Of a stretch of DNA of 64,000 bases, positions 1,683 to 64,000 are shown piece after piece. The notes beneath the pieces were generated by a model. That model saw only the letters and a list, made by a program, of their open reading frames with translations. It made no database searches and was not told where the DNA came from. The DNA comes from Maylandia zebra (taxonomy: Eukaryota; Chordata; Actinopteri; Cichliformes; Cichlidae), in assembly GCF_041146795.1 (NCBI RefSeq), contig NC_135175.1, positions 37,835,169 to 37,899,168 on the forward strand. Direction: 5' to 3'. Positions within the stretch are counted from its first letter, which is position 1, and each line of letters opens with the position of its first letter. The translations under genes and the position numbers were made by a program.

Positions 1683-13659
<11,977 letters not shown>

Positions 13660-21100: not shown

Positions 21101-22303
21101 TTCCCACAGTGTGCACTATGTGCTTCGAATATTGTGTGTACTTTTTGTTTTATACAGTTGTCAGCCAGGCATCTAACTATGGAAAAAATTACACTCCAAA
21201 AGACCCCGGGCTTCTGACAAAACAACCCGGGCTGAAGCCCAGTAAGCCACCCCCACGCTCCGCCCCTGTTATAAACACACACTCACACAGAGTAACTCCA
21301 CCAGGGTGCTAATTTCGGGTCACTGTTGCCGGTCCAGGCCCGGATAAAGGATCAGGGTTGGAATTGTGACATTAAAAAAACAATAATTGCTAAAAGAAAT
21401 GTAATTTTTAGTTCTAAATAAATTCTAAATGCATTTACAACGTTTTCTAATCACTTTATGTCTCTTCAACGATGTTATTTCTCTCTCCAACAACGTGGGT
21501 TACAATTACATTAGCATGACCAATTATGCAAATTAGGCAATTACGTCATTTAGCGACTTCTAGCGACTTTTAGGGCAGCCAGTAGCGATTTTCCTTACTG
21601 AGGAGTTGGCAACACTGGGCAGAGCCCCCCTTCATGTAAACGCAACATTGCTCCGTCAGCACGAGCCGTTCAGAAGCAGAGTGAAGCTGACCCCCCACCC
21701 ACTTGAAACGTAAAGGCAAATAGGCGGAGCGGTTAGTGCTACGTTTGTGCAGATTTGTGCAGGTAAAATTAGCGTTTGTGCTGCTATCATTTTAAAGATA
21801 TTAATAACAATTTCTAGAGGTCATCAGAGGTCAACCAGCCCCCCCACATTAATTAAATCAAACAAAATGGGTGTCAATCAACTGTGCTACGTTTGTGCTG
21901 GTTTGTGCTGCTAAAATTTTCGTTTGTGCTGCTTCTGTTTTAAAGATATTAATGAAAATGTAAAGGTCAAAAGGTCAACCAGCCCCCCCACATTACCCAA
22001 ATCCAACAAAAGTGGTATCAAACGTTTGTGCTACGTTTGTGCTGCAGAAATTTTTGTTTGTGCCGTTATTATTTTAAAGATATTAACAAAAATTTCTAGA
22101 GGTCAACCAGCCTCCCCATATTAATGGAATCAAACAAAATGGATGTCAAACGTTTGTGCTGGTTTGTGCTGCAAAAATGTTTGTTTGTGCTGCTAACATT
22201 TTAAAATGTTTAATAAAATAACGTCTTGATGCGTGCTTAATCATCCAGGTAAGTAAATCCCAAAAGGTTGATTCTGTTCATCTGGACATTTTCAGTTGGA
22301 GAA

Positions 22304-22336
22304 ACGTTTCGTCACTCATCCAAGTGACTTCTTCAG
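22304..22336 (-). ncRNA. Hammerhead-ribozyme-like motif (left arm of foldback element)
   Basis: Minus strand: core CUGAAGA, an extra A, stem II GUCAC/GUGAC with an 8-nt loop, then GAAA and ACGU. Flanking stem I pairs GAGA with UCUC and, after an internal loop, CAGU with ACUG. The inverted copy lies at 23579-23611. It differs from the canonical hammerhead by the additional A before stem II and by having only a 4-nt self-complementary ACGU for stem III. Confidence 0.55.
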
Positions 22337-22699
22337 TCTCAGCTGACTGTAGGTTTCCCCAACCATATAAACAGTACATTTGCATAGTGAAGGAAACTAG
22401 CGCCACTGAATGAACAATGTGCCGGGGGGTTAATTCCATGATTGTTAGTATGCAAATTCTTATGACCATTGATCAATGACAACTAATCAAAGCCTATTGA
22501 TCAATGGCCATGAGTACCATTCACAGAAAGTGGGGAATGGCTACAATCACAGCATTGTAGGATGGCGAAAGATGTACCCTTGGGCCCCCCTTCTCGATCC
22601 AGAGATGGTCAGCATCCTGACAGCCCGATGGACGAAGCTGTCTCTCAGTCTGCTGGTTCTGCCCCGGAGGCTCTTCAGTATCCAGCCCTCACACATCTG

Positions 22700-23040
22700 A
22701 ACACTAGAGACTCATATGTCAGAGTGCTGTTCATAGACTTCAGTTCAGCATTCAACACCATCATTCCCCAGCAACTCATTCACAAACTGGATCTGCTGGG
22801 GATCAGCACCTTGCTGTATAACGGGCTGCTAGATTTCTTGACAGGAAGACAGCAGACAGTACGGGTCAACAGCAACACCTCCAGCCCAAGAACACGATAT
22901 ACGGGGGCTACCCAAGGATGTGTGTTGAGCTCCCTTCTCTTCACTCTGCTGACCCACGACGAGATCTACTACAGGGGTGAAGTTAACCATCTGCCAGAGT
23001 GGTACAGCAACAACAACCTGTCCCTGAATGTCATCATCGA
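22700..23040 (+). pseudogene. LINE reverse transcriptase fragment lacking the catalytic FADD box
   Basis: The plus-strand frame reads [20 protein letters not shown], then [12 protein letters not shown] and [15 protein letters not shown], and jumps from LLTHD to [11 protein letters not shown] and NNNLSLNV. The expected segment with the catalytic (Y/F)ADD is deleted while the frame is kept. The sequence is Rex1/L2-like and lies in the centre of the foldback element. It is dead as a polymerase. Confidence 0.75.
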
Positions 23041-23578
23041 TGCATTTTGGGATGTAGGCAGTGACAGTTTCTGTATATTCCTGAAAGTCTGTGGTGTTGT
23101 CGTGTGTGGCGGCCTGTGGTGGAAAAGCAGTGCCTCTGAGGACCCTTCTGGCCACACCTGTACCTGCTTACGAACTGGTTTGGTGACTTTGACCAGGGGC
23201 CTGTGGGAACCCATGGCACACCTAGATTTCTGCCTGTACTGACCCTTATGCAAAATAGGTGGAATTAAGACAGTTCCAAAAGCAAACACAACTGATCAGT
23301 GCTGAGAGTGGTCCTGTTGCTGAGGTTGGGATGATCCTGTAATCTCTTATGAACGACCTCCAACGCTTCTATGACTGGGATGCAAGTGAAGACAGATGTA
23401 ACATCTCTCTCTCACTGTACATGTACTGTTTATAAAATTAGGGAAACATAACCTGCACAAACAAAATAATTTGCAGGACAAATGTTTGACATCAATTTTG
23501 TTCGATTTGAAGAAGGTAGGGGGGGCAACTTCACTCACGGGTGTTTATATGGTTGGGGAAACCTGCAGTCAGCTGAGA

Positions 23579-23611
23579 CTGAAGAAGTCACTTGGATGAG
23601 TGACGAAACGT
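23579..23611 (+). ncRNA. Hammerhead-ribozyme-like motif (right arm of foldback element)
   Basis: This is the inverted copy of 22304-22336, with the same core CUGAAGA-A, stem II GUCAC/GUGAC and GAAACGU. Both arms therefore carry the motif, on opposite strands, so transcripts of either strand could contain one. Confidence 0.55.
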
Positions 23612-24282
23612 TTCTCCAACTGAAAATGTCCAGATGAACAGAATCAACCTTTTGGGATTTACTTACCTGGATGATTAAGCACGCATCAAGACGTTATTTT
23701 ATTAAACATTTTAAAATGCTAGCAGCACAAACAAACATTTTTGCAGCACAAACCAGCACAAACGTTTGACATCCATTTTGTTTGATTCCATTAATATGGG
23801 GGGGCTGGTTGACCTCTAGAAATTTTTGTTAATATCTTTAAAATAATAACGGCACAAACAAAAATTTCTGCAGCACAAACCAGCACAAACGTAGCACAAA
23901 CGTTTGATACCACTTTTGTTGGATTTGGGTAATGTGGGGGGGCTGGTTGACCTTTTGACCTTTACATTTTCATTAATATCTTTAAAACAGAAGCAGCACA
24001 AACGAAAATTTTAGCAGCACAAACCAGCACAAACGTAGCACAGTTGATTGACACCCATTTTGTTTGATTTAATTAATGTGGGGGGGCTGGTTGACCTCTG
24101 ATGACCTCTAGAAATTGTTATTAATATCTTTAAAATGATAGCAGCACAAACGAAAATCTTTGCAGCACAAACCAGCACAAACCAGCACAAACGTAGCACA
24201 AACGTTTGATACCACTTTTGTTGGATTTGGGTAATGTGGGGGGGCTGGTTGACCTTTACATTTTCATTAATATCTTTAAAAC

Positions 24283-31585: not shown

Positions 31586-39669
<8,084 letters not shown>

Positions 39670-46815: not shown

Positions 46816-46920
46816 CCCCTGGCTATTAAAATTAGGGAAGATTCAAGTATTGTGGGTGTGAACGGAGCAGGGAGAGGACATAAATTATTTCTGTATGCAG
46901 ACGATATTTTAGAGATGTGT
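46816..46920 (+). pseudogene. L1/Tx1-type reverse transcriptase fragment with YADD
   Basis: The frame reads PLAIKIREDSSIVGVN then HKLFLYADDILEM. The PLAIxIR...YADD pattern is that of the L1/Tx1 clade RT. Only about 35 codons remain, so it is a dead fragment at the inner edge of the telomere-associated region. Confidence 0.7.
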
Positions 46921-47504
46921 CAGGACCAGTGTTGGGACTAACGCGTTATTAAGTAACGCGTTACAGTAACTACGTTATTATTGTGGTAACGAGCACGGTA
47001 ACTAGTTATTATGCCAAAATCAGGAACGCGTTAGTCGTTACTGGGATTTAGATAGGGTCGTTACTCGTTACTTCATGTGGTGCCTATCGCGGAGCTTCCC
47101 CAGATTCAGTAACAGGGTTAGGGTGGGGTTAGGATGAGTGTTTGGGCCCCTCCTCCAATTGGAGGCGGGCGGTGCACGGGCCATCCCTCGGTAAGGGGCC
47201 TGGACCTTGGATTGTCCACGGCGTCCGCCATGGGGCACCAGGGTCCAGTCAGAAGTCCATCCAACCATGGTGAGTTGGATGGAGGCGAGTGTTTTTTTAA
47301 TTGGTTTTTCTACCAAAGTTTAAATTAAATTTTTAAAGTAAATTTTTAAAGCTTTAACTGAAATATGTAATTTTTAACTTAAATTTTTAAAGAAGTAAAA
47401 TTAAAAAATGAATTGGTTTTGAAAAAAACCTTTTAGTTATTAAAGAAAAAAGAAATCAAATTATAATAGGCCAAATGAATATGAATTTGTGTGCCTATGT
47501 GGCA

Positions 47505-47533
47505 ACGTTTCGACCTGTGAAGGTCTTCTTCAG
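47505..47533 (-). ncRNA. Hammerhead-ribozyme-like motif, proximal unit 1
   Basis: Minus strand CUGAAGA-A, stem II GACCU/AGGUC, GAAACGU. Stem I: GGC with GCC next to the core, then GUGCC with GGCAC after an internal loop. Same layout as the other motifs, with different stem sequences. Confidence 0.55.
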
Positions 47534-48109
47534 GCCAGGCACACACAAAAAAAGAAATGGGAAACAGGCTTGCTCTCAGAGGTCTGCTCTGTCCGATGGT
47601 TTGGAATGAAATGAGCAGCGAGTGCCATCCCCTTCTATTTATACCCTCCCACTTTTTTTCAGTTTGAATTTAGTTTTAGAAAGCCAAATTAGTGTTTTTA
47701 CCTTTTCGCTTTTAATTTTTCGAATAGAATTTTTACAAATGTATTTTTTAATCACTCCTCACTGGCAAAAACATCTTTTTAAAAAGATTTTAATTTTTTA
47801 ACCATGTAAATAATTTATAATCGTAGAAACAATTTTTTAACCACATTTAACCATGTCTACTGTATTTTTTTATTATTGTGTATGTAGTATTTTTTTGTAA
47901 GTCATGAATTGAGTGTTTTTAATTAATTGTAAGTAATTTTTATCCAGTAATTAGGGTTAGGGCCAAATCAAAAAATATTTAATTATGAATTATGAACCCA
48001 ATTAATTAGGGTTAAGGCCAGAACATCAAGTGGTTAGGGTTTGTCACGTGGGTTGGGGCTAAAGTAATTCGAAATAGGGTTGGGGTCAGATTAAGGTTAA
48101 TAGGGTTAG

Positions 48110-48137
48110 GGTTAGGGGGTTAGGGTTAGGGGGTTAG
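48110..48137 (+). repeat. Short interstitial telomeric repeat
   Basis: Consecutive gttaggg/gggttaggg words between two diverged units; degenerate rather than perfect TTAGGG. Confidence 0.8.
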
Positions 48138-48546
48138 GGATGTGGAATTGAGTCTGGTCCCGAAAGGGTCCAGACGGTGCTCGGTCCATCCCTCCACCCC
48201 TGCCACCTGTCCCCCGCTGGACACGTCTACGGGAAGGCAGCCGCCCTCTCCCGTGACGCACCACCGTCCAGCCTACTGAGTCCATCCGGGACCCCATGGA
48301 TGTTTTTTGTATCTCTTGATGTCGCCTTTGTTATCTTTATTTAATAATTGTTTTAATGTGCTATTTATTCCAGTTAGATATGTAAATTATGTGTATATGA
48401 ATTTACAATCACAAACAAGGCGAGAAAAAAAGAAAAAGTAAAAAAAAGTAAATGAAATTTGTTTTTAAACAAAAATAGATGAAATCAATAAAATTGTTTA
48501 ATTTTTAATAAGTGAAAACCAATGAATTAACGTGCCCACTGCCGCG

Positions 48547-48576
48547 ACGTTTCGACCCAAGATAGGTCTTCCTCAG
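48547..48576 (-). ncRNA. Hammerhead-ribozyme-like motif, proximal unit 2
   Basis: Minus strand CUGAGGA-A, stem II GACC/GGUC with a longer loop, GAAACGUC. Stem I: AGC/GC(G) next to the core and GUGCCC with GGGCAC outside. The variable core position N7 is G here and A in the others, which the hammerhead consensus CUGANGA allows. Confidence 0.55.
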
Positions 48577-49129
48577 GCTGGGGCACAATGAATAAGCTGG
48601 GAATGCACAGAGAGAGAGAGATGTTGCCTCTTCAATGGTCAGCTCCCAAATGAGCTCCTCTCTACTGTGCAGCCTTTTATAGGCTTGGTTTCCAACGTGA
48701 GTTTTTTTCGAATTTTAGGTTAGGCAATGTATTTTGAAATGGCTGGGATGGTTTTAGACCAAAATGAATGTGTGTTTTTTAACCTTTGTAATAAAATTGC
48801 ATGAAATGTATTTTTATTTTGTATATTATGTGAATTTTCAAAAAACTGTATTTTTAAGTGATGTATATGAGATTTTAAATTTGCATATTTAGGTTTTAAA
48901 TCCAATCGTGTTTTTATGAATTTTTAAGTGACGTATATTAGATTTTAATTTTGCATTTTTATGTGTTAAATCCAATCGTGTTTTTATGAATTTTGGTGAG
49001 TTATATAGAGAAATGAGTTTATGATTTGAAAATTGTATTTGTGTTTTTAGCCAAATTGTGTTTTTATGCTTCTTGGAGTTGTGTATTTAATCAACCTGTA
49101 TTTTTAGGGGTTTTAATAAAGTTTAATTT

Positions 49130-49275
49130 AATAACATGGGTTAGGGTTAGGGTAAATAATTGGGTTGGGGCCACAATCATAGTGGTTAGGGTTAGGGCAA
49201 AATATGGGGGTTGGGTTAAAATTAAATCGTAGTGGTTAGGGTCAGGGGTTAGGGGTTAGGGTTAGGGTTAGGTGT
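49130..49275 (+). repeat. Interstitial TTAGGG-type tract
   Basis: Scattered ttagggttaggg and (ggggtta) words, more regular at 49236-49275, immediately before the GC-rich head of unit 3. Confidence 0.8.
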
Positions 49276-49416
49276 TAGAAAAGAATCAGGCCACCAGCAA
49301 GCTGGTAGCCTGAGGTGCACGGGCCATCGATGGGGCCGGGTGGTGATACCCCTGCCCTGTTTCAAAAAATTACCCATCTTGGGTTTATGCGCATTGTACA
49401 TCATTGGGCCCTCGCG

Positions 49417-49445
49417 ACGTTTCGGCATTTCTGTGCCTTCTTCAG
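49417..49445 (-). ncRNA. Hammerhead-ribozyme-like motif, proximal unit 3
   Basis: Minus strand CUGAAGA-A, stem II GGCA/UGCC, GAAACGUC. Stem I: GC/GC next to the core and CAUUGGGCC with GGCCCAAUG outside, a perfect 9-bp helix. Confidence 0.6.
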
Positions 49446-50177
49446 GCTGGCCCAATGTGTGTTCTCTTGTGTCTGTTTGACTTCTGTCTTGTCTGTGCCT
49501 CTCTTGGCTTTTATACTCTTTTTTAGCTCCTCCCACTTTTGGGTTTCCAACTTGTGTTTCTTAAAAATTCTTACTTGTTTTTCTTTCTGTTTTTCTCTGT
49601 ACGTGACTTTCTTGTCTTACTGTTTTTCTCTTTATGTGACTTCCTTGTCTTACTTGTTTTTCTTTGTTTTTCTCTTTACGTGACTTTCTTGTCTTACTGT
49701 TTTTCCCGTTACGTGACTTCCTTGTCTTACTTGTTTTTCTTTGTTTTTCTTTACGTGACTTTCTTGTCTTACTATGTTTCCTACTGTTTTTCCTCTTTAC
49801 GTGACTTCTTTGTCTTACTTGTTTTTCTTTCTGTTTTTTCTCTTTACGTGACTTTCTTGTCTTACTTACTGCTTTTCTTACTGTTTTTCTTTACGTGACT
49901 TTCTTGTCTTACTATACTTATGTTTTCTCTTACTTTTCATCTCTTTATCTTTGTTTCTTACTTTTCTTTCTCTGTTTGTTTTTTCGTGACTTTCTCTTTG
50001 TCTACTTTTCTTATTATTATTTTTCATGGCACCCCCTGCTGTTTTGACATCCCGTCCTTTGATCTTTATTCATGTTTATGATTTTGGCACCCCCTTCCTT
50101 TTATGTCCTTTCCTTATTTCCTACTTGGTTTTTTACGTGACTTTGTTTCTTTCTCTTTGTGTTTTAGGGGACCCCCC

Positions 50178-50650
50178 TGGTTAGGGTTAGGGTCTTGGGT
50201 TTGGGCAGGGGCATCCCCAACCCCACGAGGCACTGGCTGGTTAGGTGTTAGGGGTTAGGGTTAGGGGGTTAGGGTTAGGGGGTTAGGGGTTAGGGGAAAT
50301 CAAAGTTGGGAGCACGGTCCCCGAAGGGTTAGGGTTAGGGTTAGGGGTTAGGGGGTTAGGGGGGGTTAGGGGGTTAGGGTTAGGGGGTTAGGGGTTAGGG
50401 GTTAGGGGAGAAATAAGTTGGGAGTCCGGTCCCCGAAGGGGGCCGGGCTCCAATGCACTGGCCATGCCTGCTCCCGTCCCAGGCGGCAAGGTCCCCCACG
50501 GCTCTTTATTGTATTATCTTTTTATAGTCTCATTAATTTGATTTTAAAGGGTTAGGGGGGTTAGGGTTAGGGTTAGGGTTAGGGGGGGTTAGGGGGGTTA
50601 GGGTTAGGGGGTTAGGGGTTAGGGTTAGGGGGTTAGGGGGTTAGGGTGTG
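50178..50650 (+). repeat. Dense degenerate TTAGGG array
   Basis: Dozens of ttaggg, ttagggg and ttaggggg words in one orientation on +, interrupted by partial unit pieces (50288-50330, 50405-50545). Orientation puts the chromosome end to the right. Extra Gs between repeats suggest old or template-variant telomere sequence. Confidence 0.9.
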
Positions 50651-53600
50651 GGGAAAGAATAGGCCCGGCTATGCCGGAACCTAGGTGCACGGTCCATCCA
50701 TGGGACTGGTATTGGTGCCCCCTGATCAAAAAATTACCCTAAGCGGGTGTAGTGCACTGGGGTTGGGCCATTCGCGACGTTTCGGCTTAATTTAGCCTTC
50801 TTCAGGCTTGGCCCACCCGCTTCTTGTGTTCAATTTCGCCACTCTGGGCCTTTTATACTCTTGCTTTTCATTTCTGTTTTTCTTAACTTTTTTCGTTTCT
50901 TAATTTTTTCTTGTTCTCAGTTTTTTCTGCTTTAGCTCTCCCTTTTTCTGTTGTTCTTTGTTCTTTCTGTTTTTCTTTATCTTTCTCTTTGTATTTCTGT
51001 TTTTCTTTATTCTTGTTCTTTATTCTTTCTGTGTTTCTTTATCTTTCTCTTTATATTTCTGTTGTTCTTTATTCTCTCTGTTGTTCTTTATTATTTCACT
51101 TTATTTCTCTTGTGTTCTTTTCTTTATTCCTTCTCATATTTCTTTAAATGGCACCCCCTTCTTTTTAGACATCCCGTCCTGTTCTGTATTTTTCTTTATA
51201 TGGCACCCCCTTCCTGTAAATCCTTTCCTTTTGTACTTTGTCTTTTTTCTGACTTTTCTTGTCTTTTTTCCTTAGTTTAGGTTTTTAGGGCTCCCTTAGA
51301 GTTAGGGCTAGAAGGGGAGGGGGGAGGGGGGCAATGGGGTTAGGGTAAGGACAGGGTAGTGGGTGGGGGGCTCCCCACAATGAGGGAGAGAGGCAATGGG
51401 CAGGGGCACCACCAATCCCAGGAGGCACAGGCTGGTTAGGGTGTGGGGAAAGAATAGGCCCGGCTATGCCGGAACCTAGGTGCACGGTCCATCCATGGGA
51501 CTGGTATTGGTGCCCCCTGATCAAAAAATTACCCTAAGCGGGTGTAGTGCACTGGGGTTGGGCCATTCGCGACGTTTCGGCTTAATTTAGCCTTCTTCAG
51601 GCTTGGCCCACCCGCTTCTTGTGTTCAATTTCGCCACTCTGGGCCTTTTATACTCTTGCTTTTCATTTCTGTTTTTCTTAACTTTTTTCGTTTCTTAATT
51701 TTTTCTTGTTCTCAGTTTTTTCTGCTTTAGCTCTCCCTTTTTCTGTTGTTCTTTGTTCTTTCTGTTTTTCTTTATCTTTCTCTTTGTATTTCTGTTTTTC
51801 TTTATTCTTGTTCTTTATTCTTTCTGTGTTTCTTTATCTTTCTCTTTATATTTCTGTTGTTCTTTATTCTCTCTGTTGTTCTTTATTATTTCACTTTATT
51901 TCTCTTGTGTTCTTTTCTTTATTCCTTCTCATATTTCTTTAAATGGCACCCCCTTCTTTTTAGACATCCCGTCCTGTTCTGTATTTTTCTTTATATGGCA
52001 CCCCCTTCCTGTAAATCCTTTCCTTTTGTACTTTGTCTTTTTTCTGACTTTTCTTGTCTTTTTTCCTTAGTTTAGGTTTTTAGGGCTCCCTTAGAGTTAG
52101 GGCTAGAAGGGGAGGGGGGAGGGGGGCAATGGGGTTAGGGTAAGGACAGGGTAGTGGGTGGGGGGCTCCCCACAATGAGGGAGAGAGGCAATGGGCAGGG
52201 GCACCACCAATCCCAGGAGGCACAGGCTGGTTAGGGTGTGGGGAAAGAATAGGCCCGGCTATGCCGGAACCTAGGTGCACGGTCCATCCATGGGACTGGT
52301 ATTGGTGCCCCCTGATCAAAAAATTACCCTAAGCGGGTGTAGTGCACTGGGGTTGGGCCATTCGCGACGTTTCGGCTTAATTTAGCCTTCTTCAGGCTTG
52401 GCCCACCCGCTTCTTGTGTTCAATTTCGCCACTCTGGGCCTTTTATACTCTTGCTTTTCATTTCTGTTTTTCTTAACTTTTTTCGTTTCTTAATTTTTTC
52501 TTGTTCTCAGTTTTTTCTGCTTTAGCTCTCCCTTTTTCTGTTGTTCTTTGTTCTTTCTGTTTTTCTTTATCTTTCTCTTTGTATTTCTGTTTTTCTTTAT
52601 TCTTGTTCTTTATTCTTTCTGTGTTTCTTTATCTTTCTCTTTATATTTCTGTTGTTCTTTATTCTCTCTGTTGTTCTTTATTATTTCACTTTATTTCTCT
52701 TGTGTTCTTTTCTTTATTCCTTCTCATATTTCTTTAAATGGCACCCCCTTCTTTTTAGACATCCCGTCCTGTTCTGTATTTTTCTTTATATGGCACCCCC
52801 TTCCTGTAAATCCTTTCCTTTTGTACTTTGTCTTTTTTCTGACTTTTCTTGTCTTTTTTCCTTAGTTTAGGTTTTTAGGGCTCCCTTAGAGTTAGGGCTA
52901 GAAGGGGAGGGGGGAGGGGGGCAATGGGGTTAGGGTAAGGACAGGGTAGTGGGTGGGGGGCTCCCCACAATGAGGGAGAGAGGCAATGGGCAGGGGCACC
53001 ACCAATCCCAGGAGGCACAGGCTGGTTAGGGTGTGGGGAAAGAATAGGCCCGGCTATGCCGGAACCTAGGTGCACGGTCCATCCATGGGACTGGTATTGG
53101 TGCCCCCTGATCAAAAAATTACCCTAAGCGGGTGTAGTGCACTGGGGTTGGGCCATTCGCGACGTTTCGGCTTAATTTAGCCTTCTTCAGGCTTGGCCCA
53201 CCCGCTTCTTGTGTTCAATTTCGCCACTCTGGGCCTTTTATACTCTTGCTTTTCATTTCTGTTTTTCTTAACTTTTTTCGTTTCTTAATTTTTTCTTGTT
53301 CTCAGTTTTTTCTGCTTTAGCTCTCCCTTTTTCTGTTGTTCTTTGTTCTTTCTGTTTTTCTTTATCTTTCTCTTTGTATTTCTGTTTTTCTTTATTCTTG
53401 TTCTTTATTCTTTCTGTGTTTCTTTATCTTTCTCTTTATATTTCTGTTGTTCTTTATTCTCTCTGTTGTTCTTTATTATTTCACTTTATTTCTCTTGTGT
53501 TCTTTTCTTTATTCCTTCTCATATTTCTTTAAATGGCACCCCCTTCTTTTTAGACATCCCGTCCTGTTCTGTATTTTTCTTTATATGGCACCCCCTTCCT

Positions 53601-56600
53601 GTAAATCCTTTCCTTTTGTACTTTGTCTTTTTTCTGACTTTTCTTGTCTTTTTTCCTTAGTTTAGGTTTTTAGGGCTCCCTTAGAGTTAGGGCTAGAAGG
53701 GGAGGGGGGAGGGGGGCAATGGGGTTAGGGTAAGGACAGGGTAGTGGGTGGGGGGCTCCCCACAATGAGGGAGAGAGGCAATGGGCAGGGGCACCACCAA
53801 TCCCAGGAGGCACAGGCTGGTTAGGGTGTGGGGAAAGAATAGGCCCGGCTATGCCGGAACCTAGGTGCACGGTCCATCCATGGGACTGGTATTGGTGCCC
53901 CCTGATCAAAAAATTACCCTAAGCGGGTGTAGTGCACTGGGGTTGGGCCATTCGCGACGTTTCGGCTTAATTTAGCCTTCTTCAGGCTTGGCCCACCCGC
54001 TTCTTGTGTTCAATTTCGCCACTCTGGGCCTTTTATACTCTTGCTTTTCATTTCTGTTTTTCTTAACTTTTTTCGTTTCTTAATTTTTTCTTGTTCTCAG
54101 TTTTTTCTGCTTTAGCTCTCCCTTTTTCTGTTGTTCTTTGTTCTTTCTGTTTTTCTTTATCTTTCTCTTTGTATTTCTGTTTTTCTTTATTCTTGTTCTT
54201 TATTCTTTCTGTGTTTCTTTATCTTTCTCTTTATATTTCTGTTGTTCTTTATTCTCTCTGTTGTTCTTTATTATTTCACTTTATTTCTCTTGTGTTCTTT
54301 TCTTTATTCCTTCTCATATTTCTTTAAATGGCACCCCCTTCTTTTTAGACATCCCGTCCTGTTCTGTATTTTTCTTTATATGGCACCCCCTTCCTGTAAA
54401 TCCTTTCCTTTTGTACTTTGTCTTTTTTCTGACTTTTCTTGTCTTTTTTCCTTAGTTTAGGTTTTTAGGGCTCCCTTAGAGTTAGGGCTAGAAGGGGAGG
54501 GGGGAGGGGGGCAATGGGGTTAGGGTAAGGACAGGGTAGTGGGTGGGGGGCTCCCCACAATGAGGGAGAGAGGCAATGGGCAGGGGCACCACCAATCCCA
54601 GGAGGCACAGGCTGGTTAGGGTGTGGGGAAAGAATAGGCCCGGCTATGCCGGAACCTAGGTGCACGGTCCATCCATGGGACTGGTATTGGTGCCCCCTGA
54701 TCAAAAAATTACCCTAAGCGGGTGTAGTGCACTGGGGTTGGGCCATTCGCGACGTTTCGGCTTAATTTAGCCTTCTTCAGGCTTGGCCCACCCGCTTCTT
54801 GTGTTCAATTTCGCCACTCTGGGCCTTTTATACTCTTGCTTTTCATTTCTGTTTTTCTTAACTTTTTTCGTTTCTTAATTTTTTCTTGTTCTCAGTTTTT
54901 TCTGCTTTAGCTCTCCCTTTTTCTGTTGTTCTTTGTTCTTTCTGTTTTTCTTTATCTTTCTCTTTGTATTTCTGTTTTTCTTTATTCTTGTTCTTTATTC
55001 TTTCTGTGTTTCTTTATCTTTCTCTTTATATTTCTGTTGTTCTTTATTCTCTCTGTTGTTCTTTATTATTTCACTTTATTTCTCTTGTGTTCTTTTCTTT
55101 ATTCCTTCTCATATTTCTTTAAATGGCACCCCCTTCTTTTTAGACATCCCGTCCTGTTCTGTATTTTTCTTTATATGGCACCCCCTTCCTGTAAATCCTT
55201 TCCTTTTGTACTTTGTCTTTTTTCTGACTTTTCTTGTCTTTTTTCCTTAGTTTAGGTTTTTAGGGCTCCCTTAGAGTTAGGGCTAGAAGGGGAGGGGGGA
55301 GGGGGGCAATGGGGTTAGGGTAAGGACAGGGTAGTGGGTGGGGGGCTCCCCACAATGAGGGAGAGAGGCAATGGGCAGGGGCACCACCAATCCCAGGAGG
55401 CACAGGCTGGTTAGGGTGTGGGGAAAGAATAGGCCCGGCTATGCCGGAACCTAGGTGCACGGTCCATCCATGGGACTGGTATTGGTGCCCCCTGATCAAA
55501 AAATTACCCTAAGCGGGTGTAGTGCACTGGGGTTGGGCCATTCGCGACGTTTCGGCTTAATTTAGCCTTCTTCAGGCTTGGCCCACCCGCTTCTTGTGTT
55601 CAATTTCGCCACTCTGGGCCTTTTATACTCTTGCTTTTCATTTCTGTTTTTCTTAACTTTTTTCGTTTCTTAATTTTTTCTTGTTCTCAGTTTTTTCTGC
55701 TTTAGCTCTCCCTTTTTCTGTTGTTCTTTGTTCTTTCTGTTTTTCTTTATCTTTCTCTTTGTATTTCTGTTTTTCTTTATTCTTGTTCTTTATTCTTTCT
55801 GTGTTTCTTTATCTTTCTCTTTATATTTCTGTTGTTCTTTATTCTCTCTGTTGTTCTTTATTATTTCACTTTATTTCTCTTGTGTTCTTTTCTTTATTCC
55901 TTCTCATATTTCTTTAAATGGCACCCCCTTCTTTTTAGACATCCCGTCCTGTTCTGTATTTTTCTTTATATGGCACCCCCTTCCTGTAAATCCTTTCCTT
56001 TTGTACTTTGTCTTTTTTCTGACTTTTCTTGTCTTTTTTCCTTAGTTTAGGTTTTTAGGGCTCCCTTAGAGTTAGGGCTAGAAGGGGAGGGGGGAGGGGG
56101 GCAATGGGGTTAGGGTAAGGACAGGGTAGTGGGTGGGGGGCTCCCCACAATGAGGGAGAGAGGCAATGGGCAGGGGCACCACCAATCCCAGGAGGCACAG
56201 GCTGGTTAGGGTGTGGGGAAAGAATAGGCCCGGCTATGCCGGAACCTAGGTGCACGGTCCATCCATGGGACTGGTATTGGTGCCCCCTGATCAAAAAATT
56301 ACCCTAAGCGGGTGTAGTGCACTGGGGTTGGGCCATTCGCGACGTTTCGGCTTAATTTAGCCTTCTTCAGGCTTGGCCCACCCGCTTCTTGTGTTCAATT
56401 TCGCCACTCTGGGCCTTTTATACTCTTGCTTTTCATTTCTGTTTTTCTTAACTTTTTTCGTTTCTTAATTTTTTCTTGTTCTCAGTTTTTTCTGCTTTAG
56501 CTCTCCCTTTTTCTGTTGTTCTTTGTTCTTTCTGTTTTTCTTTATCTTTCTCTTTGTATTTCTGTTTTTCTTTATTCTTGTTCTTTATTCTTTCTGTGTT

Positions 56601-57740
56601 TCTTTATCTTTCTCTTTATATTTCTGTTGTTCTTTATTCTCTCTGTTGTTCTTTATTATTTCACTTTATTTCTCTTGTGTTCTTTTCTTTATTCCTTCTC
56701 ATATTTCTTTAAATGGCACCCCCTTCTTTTTAGACATCCCGTCCTGTTCTGTATTTTTCTTTATATGGCACCCCCTTCCTGTAAATCCTTTCCTTTTGTA
56801 CTTTGTCTTTTTTCTGACTTTTCTTGTCTTTTTTCCTTAGTTTAGGTTTTTAGGACTCCCTTAGAGTTAGGGCTAGAAGGGGAGGGGGGAGGGGGGAGGG
56901 GGGCAATGGGGTTAGGGTAAGGACAGGGTAGTGGGTGGGGGGCTCCCCACAATGAGGGAGAGAGGCAATGGGCAGGGGCACCACCAATCCCAGGAGGCAC
57001 AGGCTGGTTAGGGTGTGGGGAAAGAATAGGCCCGGCTATGCCGGAACCTAGGTGCACGGTCCATCCATGGGACTGGTATTGGTGCCCCCTGATCAAAAAA
57101 TTACCCTAAGCGGGTGTAGTGCACTGGGGTTGGGCCATTCGCGACGTTTCGGCTTAATTTAGCCTTCTTCAGGCTTGGCCCACCCGCTTCTTGTGTTCAA
57201 TTTCGCCACTCTGGGCCTTTTATACTCTTGCTTTTCATTTCTGTTTTTCTTAACTTTTTTCGTTTCTTAATTTTTTCTTGTTCTCAGTTTTTTCTGCTTT
57301 AGCTCTCCCTTTTTCTGTTGTTCTTTGTTCTTTCTGTTTTTCTTTATCTTTCTCTTTGTATTTCTGTTTTTCTTTATTCTTGTTCTTTATTCTTTCTGTG
57401 TTTCTTTATCTTTCTCTTTATATTTCTGTTGTTCTTTATTCTCTCTGTTGTTCTTTATTATTTCACTTTATTTCTCTTGTGTTCTTTTCTTTATTCCTTC
57501 TCATATTTCTTTAAATGGCACCCCCTTCTTTTTAGACATCCCGTCCTGTTCTGTATTTTTCTTTATATGGCACCCCCTTCCTGTAAATCCTTTCCTTTTG
57601 TACTTTGTCTTTTTTCTGACTTTTCTTGTCTTTTTTCCTTAGTTTAGGTTTTTAGGGCTCCCTTAGAGTTAGGGCTAGAAGGGGAGGGGGGAGGGGGGCA
57701 ATGGGGTTAGGGTAAGGACAGGGTAGTGGGTGGGGGGCTC
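50641..57740. repeat. 795-bp tandem array, about 9 nearly identical copies
   Basis: Units start at 50641, 51436, 52231, 53026, 53821, 54616, 55411, 56206 and 57008. The period is exactly 795 except for one unit of 802 (extra ggggagg-type 7 bp near 56890, with a G-to-A at 56854). The ninth is cut short in its last segment. Each unit: ttagggtgtggggaaagaat head, gcacggtccatccatggg, tgatcaaaaaattaccctaa, hammerhead-like motif, ccttttatactc, about 400 bp of T-rich (pyrimidine) DNA, tggcacccccttc and gacatcccgtcctgt, a G-rich block, and gaggcacaggctgg. Open frames of 78-109 codons in it are low-complexity Phe/Leu/Ser and are not genes. Confidence 0.97.
50777..50805 (-). ncRNA. Hammerhead-ribozyme-like motif of the 795-bp unit (9 copies)
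   Basis: Minus strand CUGAAGA-A, stem II GGCU/AGCC, GAAACGUC, then GCG. Stem I: GC/GC next to the core, small internal loop, and GGGCCA with UGGCCC. Other copies start at 51572, 52367, 53162, 53957, 54752, 55547, 56342 and 57144. Predicted cleavage would follow the C of ACGUC. Differences from the canonical fold: one unpaired A before stem II, and stem III reduced to self-complementary ACGU, which would favour a dimeric form. Confidence 0.6.
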
Positions 57741-57780
57741 AGGGTAGGGTTAGGGGGTTAGGGTTAGGGGGTTAGGTGTT
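57741..57780 (+). repeat. TTAGGG-type junction between the two arrays
   Basis: agggtagggttagggggtta then gggttagggggttaggtg separates the truncated last 795-bp unit from the first 1036-bp unit. The break in the 795 unit falls directly at this telomere-like tract. Confidence 0.9.
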
Positions 57781-60700
57781 GGGTAAAGACCAGGCCCGGC
57801 TATTGCCGGAACCTGAATGCACGGTCCATCAATGGGACTGGGAACGGTGCCCCCTGTTCAAAAAATTACCCTTAGCGGGTGTAGTGCACTGCCGTTGGGC
57901 CATCGCGACGTTTCGGCTGGGTGCAGCCTTCTTCAGGCTGGCCCAACGTCTTTCTGTTCTCTATGTTGCCACTCGGGGCCTTTTATACTGGGCTGTCTCC
58001 GCCCCTTTTGTTTCTCTTGAGATTTCTTTTTCTAAGTTTTTTCTGTTTCTCAGCTTTTACGTGATTCTCCCTTTTTCTATCTTTCTTTACGTTTTGTCTT
58101 TCAACCTCAACCCTTGTTTACTTGTTTTTTTCTATATTTTCTTCTTTCTGTTTATATGGCACCCCCTGCATTGTAGACATCCCGTCCTGTGTTCTTTATA
58201 TTTTCTTTAATGGCACCCCCTTCCTTTATATCCTTTCCATTTTTTCTGTTTGTGTCACTTATTCCTTCTTTGTTTATCTTATCTTTCTTTGTGTCTTTAA
58301 CGTGACTTTCTTATTATTAACTTGTGTCTTTTACGTGACTTCCTTATGCTCTTTCTTGAGTTTTCTTATCTTTCTTTGTGTCCTTTACGTGACTTTCTTA
58401 GTTTCTCTTTTCTTTGTTTGTGTCCCTTTTTCCCTCTTTGTTTTTCTTATCTTTCTTTGTGTCTTTTACGTGACTTTCTTCTTCCTTTTCTTAGGCTTTA
58501 TGTGTCTTTTACGTGACTTTTTCTTATCTTTCTCTGTGTCCTTTACGTGACTTTCTTAGTTTCTCTTTTCTTTGTTTGTGTCACTTTTTCCCTCTTTGTT
58601 TGTCTTATCTTTCTTTGTGTCTTTTACGTGACCTTCTTCTTCCTTTTCTTAGGTTTTATATTGTTCCCTTAGGTGAGGGATAAGAGGGGGGAGGAGGGGA
58701 GGGGGGTCAAAGGGGTTAGGGTTAGGGAAAGTTAGTGGGTGGGGGGATTCCCATTCTTAGGGAGTTATTAGGCAGGGGCACCACCAATCCCATGAGGCAC
58801 AGGCTGGTTAGGTGTTGGGTAAAGACCAGGCCCGGCTATTGCCGGAACCTGAATGCACGGTCCATCAATGGGACTGGGAACGGTGCCCCCTGTTCAAAAA
58901 ATTACCCTTAGCGGGTGTAGTGCACTGCCGTTGGGCCATCGCGACGTTTCGGCTGGGTGCAGCCTTCTTCAGGCTGGCCCAACGTCTTTCTGTTCTCTAT
59001 GTTGCCACTCGGGGCCTTTTATACTGGGCTGTCTCCGCCCCTTTTGTTTCTCTTGAGATTTCTTTTTCTAAGTTTTTTCTGTTTCTCAGCTTTTACGTGA
59101 TTCTCCCTTTTTCTATCTTTCTTTACGTTTTGTCTTTCAACCTCAACCCTTGTTTACTTGTTTTTTTCTATATTTTCTTCTTTCTGTTTATATGGCACCC
59201 CCTGCATTGTAGACATCCCGTCCTGTGTTCTTTATATTTTCTTTAATGGCACCCCCTTCCTTTATATCCTTTCCATTTTTTCTGTTTGTGTCACTTATTC
59301 CTTCTTTGTTTATCTTATCTTTCTTTGTGTCTTTAACGTGACTTTCTTATTATTATCTTGTGTCTTTTACGTGACTTCCTTATGCTCTTTCTTGAGTTTT
59401 CTTATCTTTCTTTGTGTCCTTTACGTGACTTTCTTAGTTTCTCTTTTCTTTGTTTGTGTCCCTTTTTCCCTCTTTGTTTTTCTTATCTTTCTTTGTGTCT
59501 TTTACGTGACTTTCTTCTTCCTTTTCTTAGGCTTTATGTGTCTTTTACGTGACTTTTTCTTATCTTTCTCTGTGTCCTTTACGTGACTTTCTTAGTTTCT
59601 CTTTTCTTTGTTTGTGTCACTTTTTCCCTCTTTGTTTGTCTTATCTTTCTTTGTGTCTTTTACGTGACCTTCTTCTTCCTTTTCTTAGGTTTTATATTGT
59701 TCCCTTAGGTGAGGGATAAGAGGGGGGAGGAGGGGAGGGGGGTCAAAGGGGTTAGGGTTAGGGAAAGTTAGTGGGTGGGGGGATTCCCATTCTTAGGGAG
59801 TTATTAGGCAGGGGCACCACCAATCCCATGAGGCACAGGCTGGTTAGGTGTTGGGTAAAGACCAGGCCCGGCTATTGCCGGAACCTGAATGCACGGTCCA
59901 TCAATGGGACTGGGAACGGTGCCCCCTGTTCAAAAAATTACCCTTAGCGGGTGTAGTGCACTGCCGTTGGGCCATCGCGACGTTTCGGCTGGGTGCAGCC
60001 TTCTTCAGGCTGGCCCAACGTCTTTCTGTTCTCTATGTTGCCACTCGGGGCCTTTTATACTGGGCTGTCTCCGCCCCTTTTGTTTCTCTTGAGATTTCTT
60101 TTTCTAAGTTTTTTCTGTTTCTCAGCTTTTACGTGATTCTCCCTTTTTCTATCTTTCTTTACGTTTTGTCTTTCAACCTCAACCCTTGTTTACTTGTTTT
60201 TTTCTATATTTTCTTCTTTCTGTTTATATGGCACCCCCTGCATTGTAGACATCCCGTCCTGTGTTCTTTATATTTTCTTTAATGGCACCCCCTTCCTTTA
60301 TATCCTTTCCATTTTTTCTGTTTGTGTCACTTATTCCTTCTTTGTTTATCTTATCTTTCTTTGTGTCTTTAACGTGACTTTCTTATTATTATCTTGTGTC
60401 TTTTACGTGACTTCCTTATGCTCTTTCTTGAGTTTTCTTATCTTTCTTTGTGTCCTTTACGTGACTTTCTTAGTTTCTCTTTTCTTTGTTTGTGTCCCTT
60501 TTTCCCTCTTTGTTTTTCTTATCTTTCTTTGTGTCTTTTACGTGACTTTCTTCTTCCTTTTCTTAGGCTTTATGTGTCTTTTACGTGACTTTTTCTTATC
60601 TTTCTCTGTGTCCTTTACGTGACTTTCTTAGTTTCTCTTTTCTTTGTTTGTGTCACTTTTTCCCTCTTTGTTTGTCTTATCTTTCTTTGTGTCTTTTACG

Positions 60701-63700
60701 TGACCTTCTTCTTCCTTTTCTTAGGTTTTATATTGTTCCCTTAGGTGAGGGATAAGAGGGGGGAGGAGGGGAGGGGGGTCAAAGGGGTTAGGGTTAGGGA
60801 AAGTTAGTGGGTGGGGGGATTCCCATTCTTAGGGAGTTATTAGGCAGGGGCACCACCAATCCCATGAGGCACAGGCTGGTTAGGTGTTGGGTAAAGACCA
60901 GGCCCGGCTATTGCCGGAACCTGAATGCACGGTCCATCAATGGGACTGGGAACGGTGCCCCCTGTTCAAAAAATTACCCTTAGCGGGTGTAGTGCACTGC
61001 CGTTGGGCCATCGCGACGTTTCGGCTGGGTGCAGCCTTCTTCAGGCTGGCCCAACGTCTTTCTGTTCTCTATGTTGCCACTCGGGGCCTTTTATACTGGG
61101 CTGTCTCCGCCCCTTTTGTTTCTCTTGAGATTTCTTTTTCTAAGTTTTTTCTGTTTCTCAGCTTTTACGTGATTCTCCCTTTTTCTATCTTTCTTTACGT
61201 TTTGTCTTTCAACCTCAACCCTTGTTTACTTGTTTTTTTCTATATTTTCTTCTTTCTGTTTATATGGCACCCCCTGCATTGTAGACATCCCGTCCTGTGT
61301 TCTTTATATTTTCTTTAATGGCACCCCCTTCCTTTATATCCTTTCCATTTTTTCTGTTTGTGTCACTTATTCCTTCTTTGTTTATCTTATCTTTCTTTGT
61401 GTCTTTAACGTGACTTTCTTATTATTATCTTGTGTCTTTTACGTGACTTCCTTATGCTCTTTCTTGAGTTTTCTTATCTTTCTTTGTGTCCTTTACGTGA
61501 CTTTCTTAGTTTCTCTTTTCTTTGTTTGTGTCCCTTTTTCCCTCTTTGTTTTTCTTATCTTTCTTTGTGTCTTTTACGTGACTTTCTTCTTCCTTTTCTT
61601 AGGCTTTATGTGTCTTTTACGTGACTTTTTCTTATCTTTCTCTGTGTCCTTTACGTGACTTTCTTAGTTTCTCTTTTCTTTGTTTGTGTCACTTTTTCCC
61701 TCTTTGTTTGTCTTATCTTTCTTTGTGTCTTTTACGTGACCTTCTTCTTCCTTTTCTTAGGTTTTATATTGTTCCCTTAGGTGAGGGATAAGAGGGGGGA
61801 GGAGGGGAGGGGGGTCAAAGGGGTTAGGGTTAGGGAAAGTTAGTGGGTGGGGGGATTCCCATTCTTAGGGAGTTATTAGGCAGGGGCACCACCAATCCCA
61901 TGAGGCACAGGCTGGTTAGGTGTTGGGTAAAGACCAGGCCCGGCTATTGCCGGAACCTGAATGCACGGTCCATCAATGGGACTGGGAACGGTGCCCCCTG
62001 TTCAAAAAATTACCCTTAGCGGGTGTAGTGCACTGCCGTTGGGCCATCGCGACGTTTCGGCTGGGTGCAGCCTTCTTCAGGCTGGCCCAACGTCTTTCTG
62101 TTCTCTATGTTGCCACTCGGGGCCTTTTATACTGGGCTGTCTCCGCCCCTTTTGTTTCTCTTGAGATTTCTTTTTCTAAGTTTTTTCTGTTTCTCAGCTT
62201 TTACGTGATTCTCCCTTTTTCTATCTTTCTTTACGTTTTGTCTTTCAACCTCAACCCTTGTTTACTTGTTTTTTTCTATATTTTCTTCTTTCTGTTTATA
62301 TGGCACCCCCTGCATTGTAGACATCCCGTCCTGTGTTCTTTATATTTTCTTTAATGGCACCCCCTTCCTTTATATCCTTTCCATTTTTTCTGTTTGTGTC
62401 ACTTATTCCTTCTTTGTTTATCTTATCTTTCTTTGTGTCTTTAACGTGACTTTCTTATTATTATCTTGTGTCTTTTACGTGACTTCCTTATGCTCTTTCT
62501 TGAGTTTTCTTATCTTTCTTTGTGTCCTTTACGTGACTTTCTTAGTTTCTCTTTTCTTTGTTTGTGTCCCTTTTTCCCTCTTTGTTTTTCTTATCTTTCT
62601 TTGTGTCTTTTACGTGACTTTCTTCTTCCTTTTCTTAGGCTTTATGTGTCTTTTACGTGACTTTTTCTTATCTTTCTCTGTGTCCTTTACGTGACTTTCT
62701 TAGTTTCTCTTTTCTTTGTTTGTGTCACTTTTTCCCTCTTTGTTTGTCTTATCTTTCTTTGTGTCTTTTACGTGACCTTCTTCTTCCTTTTCTTAGGTTT
62801 TATATTGTTCCCTTAGGTGAGGGATAAGAGGGGGGAGGAGGGGAGGGGGGTCAAAGGGGTTAGGGTTAGGGAAAGTTAGTGGGTGGGGGGATTCCCATTC
62901 TTAGGGAGTTATTAGGCAGGGGCACCACCAATCCCATGAGGCACAGGCTGGTTAGGTGTTGGGTAAAGACCAGGCCCGGCTATTGCCGGAACCTGAATGC
63001 ACGGTCCATCAATGGGACTGGGAACGGTGCCCCCTGTTCAAAAAATTACCCTTAGCGGGTGTAGTGCACTGCCGTTGGGCCATCGCGACGTTTCGGCTGG
63101 GTGCAGCCTTCTTCAGGCTGGCCCAACGTCTTTCTGTTCTCTATGTTGCCACTCGGGGCCTTTTATACTGGGCTGTCTCCGCCCCTTTTGTTTCTCTTGA
63201 GATTTCTTTTTCTAAGTTTTTTCTGTTTCTCAGCTTTTACGTGATTCTCCCTTTTTCTATCTTTCTTTACGTTTTGTCTTTCAACCTCAACCCTTGTTTA
63301 CTTGTTTTTTTCTATATTTTCTTCTTTCTGTTTATATGGCACCCCCTGCATTGTAGACATCCCGTCCTGTGTTCTTTATATTTTCTTTAATGGCACCCCC
63401 TTCCTTTATATCCTTTCCATTTTTTCTGTTTGTGTCACTTATTCCTTCTTTGTTTATCTTATCTTTCTTTGTGTCTTTAACGTGACTTTCTTATTATTAA
63501 CTTGTGTCTTTTACGTGACTTCCTTATGCTCTTTCTTGAGTTTTCTTATCTTTCTTTGTGTCCTTTACGTGACTTTCTTAGTTTCTCTTTTCTTTGTTTG
63601 TGTCCCTTTTTCCCTCTTTGTTTTTCTTATCTTTCTTTGTGTCTTTTACGTGACTTTCTTCTTCCTTTTCTTAGGCTTTATGTGTCTTTTACGTGACTTT

Positions 63701-64000
63701 TTCTTATCTTTCTCTGTGTCCTTTACGTGACTTTCTTAGTTTCTCTTTTCTTTGTTTGTGTCACTTTTTCCCTCTTTGTTTGTCTTATCTTTCTTTGTGT
63801 CTTTTACGTGACCTTCTTCTTCCTTTTCTTAGGTTTTATATTGTTCCCTTAGGTGAGGGATAAGAGGGGGGAGGAGGGGAGGGGGGTCAAAGGGGTTAGG
63901 GTTAGGGAAAGTTAGTGGGTGGGGGGATTCCCATTCTTAGGGAGTTATTAGGCAGGGGCACCACCAATCCCATGAGGCACAGGCTGGTTAGGTGTTGGGT
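57771..64000. repeat. 1036-bp tandem array, six copies plus start of a seventh, runs off the window
   Basis: Units start at 57771, 58807, 59843, 60879, 61915 and 62951, with a seventh beginning at 63987. Period exactly 1036. Head gttaggtgttgggtaaagac, gcacggtccatcaatgggac, ttcaaaaaattacccttagc, hammerhead-like motif, ggccttttatactg, then about 650 bp of T-rich DNA with eight acgtga words, tggcaccccctgc, gacatcccgtcctgtg, G-rich block, gaggcacaggctggtta. The head, motif and gcacccc/catcccgtcct blocks are shared with the 795-bp unit; the T-rich part is different. One site varies: A at 58320 and 63500, T at 59356, 60392, 61428 and 62464. Frames of 64-144 codons are low complexity and not called. 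Confidence 0.97.
57908..57936 (-). ncRNA. Hammerhead-ribozyme-like motif of the 1036-bp unit (6 copies)
   Basis: Minus strand CUGAAGA-A, stem II GGCUG/CAGCC closed by a CACC loop, GAAACGUC. Stem I: GC/GC next to the core, a two-base bulge, then CGUUGGGCCA with UGGCCCAACG, the longest outer helix in the window. Other copies start at 58944, 59980, 61016, 62052 and 63088. Confidence 0.62.

What the first reader, a model, noticed from the sequence alone, without database searches (positions are those of the whole stretch)
47505..63116. Recurring hammerhead-ribozyme-like motif with covarying stems in every main telomere-associated unit
Seen: 18 occurrences in this region, all on the minus strand (47505, 48547, 49417, nine in the 795-bp units, six in the 1036-bp units), and two more in the foldback element. 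Invariant: CUGA(A/G)GAA before and GAAACGU after a hairpin. Variable but always complementary: stem II is GACCU/AGGUC, GACC/GGUC, GGCA/UGCC, GGCU/AGCC, GGCUG/CAGCC or GUCAC/GUGAC. The flanks also pair (stem I) with different sequences each time. Conserved core with changing but paired stems is the signature of a selected RNA fold, and the core matches the hammerhead strands CUGANGA and GAAA. Deviations: one extra A before stem II, and stem III shortened to palindromic ACGU. Known: minimal hammerheads occur in Penelope-like elements and in newt and schistosome tandem repeats. Inference: these repeats yield self-processing RNAs.
Basis: partly seen in the sequence, partly recalled or inferred. 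Interest (0 to 1): 0.9.

Follow-up and report, generated by a model that had tools for sequence, protein, structure and literature searches.

The report
Telomere-homing fish retroelements carrying hammerhead ribozymes
The repeats at the end of this fish chromosome look like pieces of a mobile element that carries a small self-cutting RNA motif and a short RNA stretch matching the chromosome tip, and that appears to be copied onto chromosome ends from that stretch.

Summary
In detail: 18 minus-strand motifs at 47505-63116 plus two in the foldback element, with covarying stems I and II. The motif fits the minimal, helix-III-less hammerhead class reported in Penelope-like elements (PLEs), with one extra A before stem II. 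Cleavage is untested.

Window unit B (48132-49247) is a 99.7-100% identical fragment of a 5,185-bp tandem PLE at one end of contig C1, encoding an SGNH-fold ORF1 and an RT + GIY-YIG ORF2. In 18 of 18 window units the ribozyme is followed by a module: GGMCCGWGCA, a hairpin, 12-14 nt, then CCUAACC, the complement of the telomere G-strand. Seven of seven insertion events in the window have TTAGGG-like DNA at that heptamer; five have different 5' ends that run into TTAGGG. The ORF1 residue overlapping the heptamer varies only among R, Q, P, L. RT copies near contig ends are oriented as predicted, 29 of 29. I infer telomeric target-primed retrotransposition by an endonuclease-bearing PLE of a teleost. 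A second terminal PLE subfamily lacks the heptamer, so docking is not universal.

The parts
47505..47533 (-). Hammerhead core, unit A (C3 to U16.1); predicted cut after U17 at 47504
   Evidence: stem I GUGUGCCU/AGGCACAC
48547..48576 (-). Hammerhead core, unit B; predicted cut after C17 at 48546; identical to the ribozyme of the 5,185-bp PLE
49417..49445 (-). Hammerhead core, unit C; predicted cut after C17 at 49416
50777..57172 (-). Nine hammerhead cores of the 795-bp array (50777, 51572, 52367, 53162, 53957, 54752, 55547, 56342, 57144)
57908..63116 (-). Six hammerhead cores of the 1036-bp array (57908, 58944, 59980, 61016, 62052, 63088)
22304..22336 (-). Hammerhead core of the foldback element, left arm; family that also occurs at interior places of C1; no CCTAACC within 700 nt downstream
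23579..23611 (+). Hammerhead core of the foldback element, right arm; no CCTAACC within 700 nt downstream
47127..47182 (-). Telomere-docking module, unit A: GGCCCGTGCA, hairpin, 12 nt, CCTAACC (47127-47133)
48132..48187 (-). Docking module, unit B (inside ORF1 sequence; CCTAACC at 48132-48138)
49266..49325 (-). Docking module, unit C (CCTAACC at 49266-49272)
50639..50695 (-). Docking module of the innermost 795-bp unit, joined to TTAGGG repeats
57770..57827 (-). Docking module of the innermost 1036-bp unit, joined to TTAGGG repeats
50288..50326 (-). Event I4: 5'-truncated 3' end of a C7R-like unit, TTAGGG on both sides
   Evidence: 90% identity over 42 bp to L154
50400..50548 (-). Event I5: 5'-truncated 3' end of a C7R-like unit, TTAGGG on both sides
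   Evidence: 91% identity over 81 bp to L154
48132..49247 (-). Unit B: end fragment (3'UTR, TATA, ribozyme, 5'UTR, start of ORF1) of the 5,185-bp PLE
   Evidence: 100% over 445 bp and 99.7% over 671 bp
47635..47643 (-). TATA-like box, unit A (TATAAATAG), 110 nt upstream of the core
48674..48681 (-). TATA-like box, unit B (TATAAAAG), 105 nt upstream
49508..49515 (-). TATA-like box, unit C, 70 nt upstream
50850..50857 (-). TATA-like box of the first 795-bp unit, 52 nt upstream (repeated in each unit)
57980..57987 (-). TATA-like box of the first 1036-bp unit, 51 nt upstream (repeated in each unit)
50639..57740 (-). Array of nine 795-bp non-autonomous units, capped by TTAGGG on its telomere side
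57770..64000 (-). Array of 1036-bp units running to the contig end (window end = last base of contig C9)

Best explanation
The units are the ends and non-autonomous derivatives of a telomere-homing Penelope-like element of teleost fish. Shown by sequence: each window unit has, on the RNA-sense (minus, C-rich) strand, a TATA-like box, a minimal PLE-class hammerhead, and then a docking module (GGMCCGWGCA, hairpin, 12-14 nt, CCUAACC). A full element in the same genome encodes an SGNH-fold ORF1 and an RT + GIY-YIG ORF2. Window insertions join TTAGGG-like DNA at CCUAACC; five of seven end at different upstream positions that run into TTAGGG. Inferred: the PLE protein binds the stem-loop at the start of ORF1, the chromosome 3' overhang (...GGTTAGG) pairs with CCUAACC, reverse transcription starts there and extends the chromosome through the uncut ribozyme and upstream sequence, and telomerase recaps the end. 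If the cDNA reaches the docking site of an upstream tandem copy it ends in GGTTAGG again, which could prime the next copy and build head-to-tail arrays. The hammerhead is inherited from PLE biology; it probably cleaves only as a dimer or when protein-bound, and sets RNA ends rather than serving insertion itself (inferred).
Against: No RNA, cleavage or insertion data. Of 8 further RT-linked loci with a ribozyme, 5 (C5R, C47, C6R, C33L, C7L; RT about 54-55% identical) lie near contig ends, oriented the same way, but lack CCTAACC in the 1.2-1.45 kb fetched downstream. 16 of 45 RT matches are interior, including a docking-bearing tandem at C9:31.63 Mb. Four of nine terminal arrays (outer C1L, C4L, C13L, C14R) run opposite to prediction; an N gap was seen only at C1L, and for the others only 1.7-10 kb was looked at. 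The C13/C10 array family lacks the GGMCC motif and its CCTAACC is not in the docking arrangement. Two of 13 sequences have no good hairpin. Two of the 13 non-continuing sites are not telomeric. The ends are contig ends inside arrays, not sequenced telomere tips. Arrays could be amplified by recombination.
Confidence: 0.77

Rival explanations
1. Ordinary PLE-derived satellite: the elements inserted generically, and the chromosome-end arrays, junctions and orientation come from subtelomeric recombination or break-induced copying.
For: 795-bp units (7 of the first 8 identical in register) and 1036-bp units (99.9-100%) are near-identical within arrays, which recombination easily gives; PLEs generally form tandem repeats (PMC11167929); a terminal subfamily without the heptamer exists.
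Against: Fixed 3' junction at one heptamer in several families with variable 5' ends; short truncated copies capped on both sides; amino-acid pattern implying nucleotide-level conservation of the heptamer inside ORF1; 29 of 29 orientation.
Confidence: 0.12
2. Retrozyme-like self-processing: tandem transcripts are cut at each hammerhead into monomers, circularised, and these drive spread; the telomere heptamer is secondary.
For: Tandem HHR arrays with TATA-like boxes recall metazoan retrozymes, where axolotl motifs cleave better in dimeric constructs (PMC7229834 passages).
Against: Units are 795-1036 bp, not about 170-400; the docking site lies 3' of the ribozyme, so cutting would separate it from the body; five of seven window insertions carry the uncut ribozyme; 0 of the 5 telomere-side ends read lies at a predicted cut site.
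Confidence: 0.15
3. The fold is not a ribozyme but a protein-binding or packaging structure for the PLE RNP that keeps hammerhead-like letters.
For: Rfam models miss it; extra A in 100 of 100 copies; stem III reduced to ACGU.
Against: 71 of 72 matches of the covariance model in 53 fetched loci keep the full core letters (compared with the pattern counts; the exception has one added A), though the model itself was built from pattern-selected sequences; the Anolis PLE motif cleaves when protein is added and core mutants abolish it (PMC11167929).
Confidence: 0.12
4. Telomerase itself, not the PLE enzyme, copies these RNAs onto ends because CCUAACC mimics its template.
For: The heptamer equals part of the vertebrate telomerase template (recalled); the arrayed non-autonomous units have no RT domain that I found or looked for beyond the open frames.
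Against: A hairpin at fixed distance suggests a dedicated binder; the Anolis PLE enzyme starts inside a stem-loop at the ORF start; telomerase is not known to copy kilobases (recalled).
Confidence: 0.07

Closest known systems
Minimal type I hammerheads of Penelope-like elements (Cervera and De la Pena 2014; Lunse et al. 2017; neither paper held, seen only as cited in passages of PMC7761336)
   Same: Core, stems I and II, loss of helix III, PLE linkage, tandem occurrence, expected dimer action
   Different: Extra A between A9 and stem II; whether the published set shares it could not be read
Terminons / Athena telomeric PLEs of bdelloid rotifers (passages of PMC6431247, and PMC3846280)
   Same: Hammerhead followed by reverse-complement telomeric sequence; telomeric location; 5' truncation with telomeric recapping; GDSL-type esterase in the element
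   Different: Here the RT carries a GIY-YIG endonuclease; a separate hairpin 100-460 nt after the ribozyme precedes the heptamer; host is a fish
Poseidon of Anolis carolinensis, PAc (PMC11167929, main-text section read)
   Same: RT + GIY-YIG, tandem copies, ribozyme at the start, internal initiation of reverse transcription in a stem loop just inside the ORF
   Different: PAc targets AT-rich DNA with no homology at the start site; here the start site matches telomeric DNA, and there is a separate ORF1
GIY-YIG PLEs bounded by telomere-like repeats beside a sturgeon herpesvirus (PMC12031113 passages)
   Same: PLE next to TTAGGG-like repeats in a fish
   Different: The word hammerhead does not occur in that main text; in the passages seen the PLE is treated as inserting at random sites

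Membership tests
Hammerhead ribozyme | Core CUGANGA and GAAA | tested here: met
   present in 23 of 23 families, but partly by construction: the sequences were collected with a pattern fixing these letters. Less circular: 71 of 72 covariance-model matches in 53 loci keep them
Hammerhead ribozyme | Stems I and II paired with covariation | tested here: met
   fifth stem II pair fails in 10 of 23, third stem I pair in 14 of 23
Hammerhead ribozyme | NUH at the cut site | tested here: met
   GUC or GUU in the window; GUA in L185
Hammerhead ribozyme | Closed stem III in one molecule | tested here: not met
   only palindromic ACGU; PLE minimal variants are reported to lack helix III (PMC7761336 passages)
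Hammerhead ribozyme | No base between A9 and stem II | tested here: not met
   one extra A in 100 of 100 copies, with a pattern that leaves this base free
Hammerhead ribozyme | Match to Rfam hammerhead models | tested here: not met
   0 at gathering for the whole window and none at E up to 10 for 47-64 kb
Hammerhead ribozyme | Self-cleavage after H17 | not testable with these tools
   needs in vitro RNA
Penelope-like element (EN-containing) | RT and GIY-YIG in one ORF | tested here: met
   in the 5,185-bp copies at C1 that unit B matches; not encoded in the window
Penelope-like element (EN-containing) | Tandem or partial tandem with pLTR holding ribozyme | tested here: met
Penelope-like element (EN-containing) | Clade by RT phylogeny | not tested
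   no named reference set at hand
Terminon / Athena | Lacks endonuclease | tested here: not met
   GIY-YIG 28 bits vs cut-off 22.6
Terminon / Athena | Ribozyme followed by reverse-complement telomeric sequence at the 3' end | tested here: met
   but 100-460 nt and a hairpin lie between
Terminon / Athena | 5' truncation capped by telomeric repeats | tested here: met
   five of seven window events; one undefined, one runs off the contig
Retrozyme | Small non-coding unit with hammerhead made into circular RNA | not testable with these tools
   no RNA data; unit size is above the reported ~170-400 nt

The most novel reading that the evidence does not exclude
Teleost PLEs have turned their internal reverse-transcription start site, which sits inside the protein-coding ORF1, into a telomerase-like template. 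That makes an endonuclease-bearing retrotransposon that extends vertebrate chromosome ends in parallel with telomerase, and whose cDNA ends regenerate a telomeric primer so that head-to-tail ribozyme satellites grow at the tips.
Probability: 0.55. Interest if true: 0.92.

Novelty: new variant of a known kind. Interest (0 to 1): 0.8.

Why it matters
Telomere addition by PLEs is described for endonuclease-deficient elements of rotifers, fungi, protists and plants (PMC3846280 passages). A telomere-homing, endonuclease-bearing PLE in a vertebrate, with the template encoded inside an ORF, would show how a retroelement with a generic internal start site can become a telomere specialist by a small sequence change. 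It offers a testable system for how PLE and telomerase reverse transcriptases divide labour, and an explanation for a class of subtelomeric satellites in fish.

Tried and rejected
Rfam search at gathering and permissive thresholds: no hammerhead; weak Histone3 and snoZ182 hits are below their gathering scores and rejected. A pattern scan of viral contigs gave 120 places, 119 without a stem, and became a control. RT relatives in viral contigs: none. PDB by sequence: no match for ORF1 or ORF2. Papers not held: Cervera 2014, Arkhipova 2017, Lunse 2017 (one search used a DOI recalled wrongly; its PMC number), so I cannot say whether the extra A is in the published set. I tried to look genome-wide for insertions ending at the predicted cut site; that search did not complete. 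Inner junctions of the docking-less subfamily were sought: two regions held no ribozyme and the third held another family, with GGAGCGTGCA, a hairpin by eye and CCCTAACC, so the targeting of that subfamily is unresolved. I considered that ribozyme-strand orientation alone proves telomeric growth and rejected it because four terminal arrays run the other way. The 300-kb limit was set after seeing the list; at 120 kb the count by the same table is 27 of 27 (C19 and C16 drop out).

Full report
1. The observation. The two-part motif CTGARGAA...GAAACGT lies 20 times in the window, 18 on the minus strand at the given coordinates and two in the foldback element; 100 shuffles give none. As a control I used the first 120 places in viral contigs that carry the same letters: only 1 of 120 has a perfect 4-bp stem between the halves, against 20 of 20 in the window. 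The window alone holds six independent sequences, since the arrays are almost identical copies.

2. Covariation. Contig ends of the same genome and one contig from a bacterial single-cell assembly (L168, probably fish-host DNA) brought 16 distinct ribozyme sequences, later 23. Stem II plus the core-proximal stem I pairs are formed in 86.4% of cells versus 66.4% in shuffles and 24-48% in slid versions; the covariation score is 0.500 versus 0.136 (the 16-family count agrees). On the 23-family set two of the five measures are weaker: pairs with a change on both sides (11 of 500 shuffles reach it) and further pair types (28 of 500). Stem I beyond the core was tested by swapping flanks: 0 of 20,000 permutations equal the sum, but 13 of 16 families are matched by at least one swap. 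A covariance model from the 16 families found the ribozyme in 9 of 9 held-out loci that carry the letter pattern, at 39-68 bits; the best of 80 chance loci (of 120) scored 15.5. The core letters in these sets were partly fixed by the pattern used to collect them. Less circular: in 53 fetched loci the model gives 72 matches at E up to 0.1, and 71 keep the full core letters (the exception has one A too many). The base after CUGANGA was left free from then on: it is A in 100 of 100 copies in the window and fetched loci. Rfam's models do not report the motif.

4. The docking module. In 13 of 16 families (skipped: the foldback family, C5 cut by the fetch, and the C13 family where the motif is not found) the ribozyme is followed 160-510 nt later by CCTAACC, preceded by a hairpin that ends 12-14 nt upstream and by GGMCCGWGCA or a variant (GGACAGTGCA at C7R; for one C7L family I allowed GAGTGCACCA by hand) (z -1.6 to -7.3 against mononucleotide shuffles). 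Hairpin halves pair with their own partner: 0 of 20,000 permutations; two of the 13 sequences used, from pattern hits on C2, have no good hairpin. All 18 telomeric window units have the module; 120 control loci (1.07 Mb) have none.

5. Junctions. In seven events in the window (A, B, C, I4, I5, first 795, first 1036) the inner flank is TTAGGG-like from the heptamer on; A has only about two repeats. The telomere-side ends of B, C, I4, I5 and the 795 array lie at different element positions and pass into TTAGGG; the end of A was not defined and the 1036 array runs off the contig. I4 and I5 are 5'-truncated fragments of the family seen at C7R. Over all 90 ribozymes, 7 have no CCTAACC in the stretch held. 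Of the 83 first sites, 54 continue into the ORF1-like AGCC(T/A)GTGC or CGCCAGTGC, and 16 lie in two array families (C13/C10 and C14R) at other spacings. Of the 13 left, 11 turn into telomere-like C-strand DNA at the heptamer: six by the script's rule (window 57908, 50777, 49417, 48547; L132 7071; L133 4081) and five by eye (window 47505; L132 5994, which joins the telomere-like 3'UTR of an inner copy; L134 1006 and 7995; L140 6129). Two do not (L134 2020; L140 5088).

6. Conservation inside a gene. CCTAACC lies 159 nt into ORF1 and encodes Pro-Asn plus the first base of the next codon. Of 122 ORF1 proteins looked at, 92 have the motif, and the next residue is R, Q, P or L in all 92; the 30 misses include N-terminally short proteins and three P-S variants. 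In an alignment of 63 of them it is the single one of 317 variable columns with at least 97% L, P, H, Q or R, the residues of codons beginning with C (Arg can also be AGR). This is expected if the RNA heptamer is selected, not the amino acid. DNA of the autonomous families at hand reads CCT AAC C (L131, L133, L140, L168, L169, L178).

7. Position and orientation. The RT search scored only the best candidates (59 of 1,346 first-look candidates), so its 61 matches are a lower bound. Of 45 on 14 contigs of known length, 29 lie within 300 kb of an end (1.4% of that sequence), at 12 ends, all 29 with the RNA-sense strand as the model predicts; 16 are interior. Tandem copies are not independent; the 12 ends are. 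The other 16 lie on C22, C33 and C47, whose lengths came: those on C33 (9.8 Mb, seven) and C47 (0.4 Mb, seven) lie in the first 55 kb, all plus; the two on C22 are about 400 kb from its ends. Ribozyme copies were seen at 9 of 35 sampled ends including the window's (stretches of 1.7 or 10 kb; three read only N); four of the nine outermost arrays face the other way, one across an N gap.

8. Results against. Of 15 further RT-upstream stretches fetched, 8 have a ribozyme and 3 of these the docking module (L169, L175, L178); the five without it belong to a subfamily that lies near contig ends in the same orientation. A docking-bearing tandem sits 6 Mb inside C9. No RNA evidence exists here.

9. Reading. 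The Anolis PLE starts reverse transcription inside the RNA, in a stem loop just after the ORF start; ribozyme cleavage is not needed for insertion in vitro and occurs only with protein (PMC11167929, main-text section). Telomeric Terminons expose reverse-complement telomeric repeats next to a hammerhead (PMC6431247 passages), and endonuclease-deficient PLEs are recapped by telomeric repeats (PMC3846280 passages). The fish element combines these: an endonuclease-bearing PLE whose internal start site reads CCUAACC. The hammerhead class is known; the docking module and its place inside ORF1 I did not find in the listings of ten searches of the held open-access library, which lacks most subscription papers.

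Noticed in passing
L131:685-2541, P0002; model of homologue P0124: ORF1 of the telomeric PLE family has a predicted SGNH/GDSL hydrolase domain with conserved GDSN and D..H; the zebrafish ZfL2-1 ORF1 esterase is among the fold matches.
   Followed up: yes
C5R, C6R, C7L, C33L, C47 (L172, L174, L179, L176, L173): A second terminal PLE subfamily has the same ribozyme class but no CCUAACC docking site in the fetched stretches; how it reaches chromosome ends is unexplained.
   Followed up: partly
C1:1-39094, C4:1-10000, C13:1-10000, C14 right end: Terminal ribozyme arrays face away from the predicted direction; misjoined scaffolds or real inversions.
   Followed up: partly
22220-23720: Foldback element whose arms carry a ribozyme family without docking site and whose centre holds what looks by eye like a fragment of a non-LTR reverse transcriptase; flanked by AGCACAAACG-rich tandem repeats in inverted orientation.
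   Followed up: partly
L168 (LJHE01000041.1): A contig filed under the bacterium Epulopiscium carries a tandem fish-type PLE with the same ribozyme and docking module; probable host DNA in a bacterial assembly.
   Followed up: partly
window 3171-4076 and 34983-36016: Tc1/mariner-like transposase reading frames (by eye, not searched).
   Followed up: no
window 46900-47100: Sequence resembling the end of a fish hAT element lies just inside the innermost telomeric insertion (recalled resemblance).
   Followed up: no
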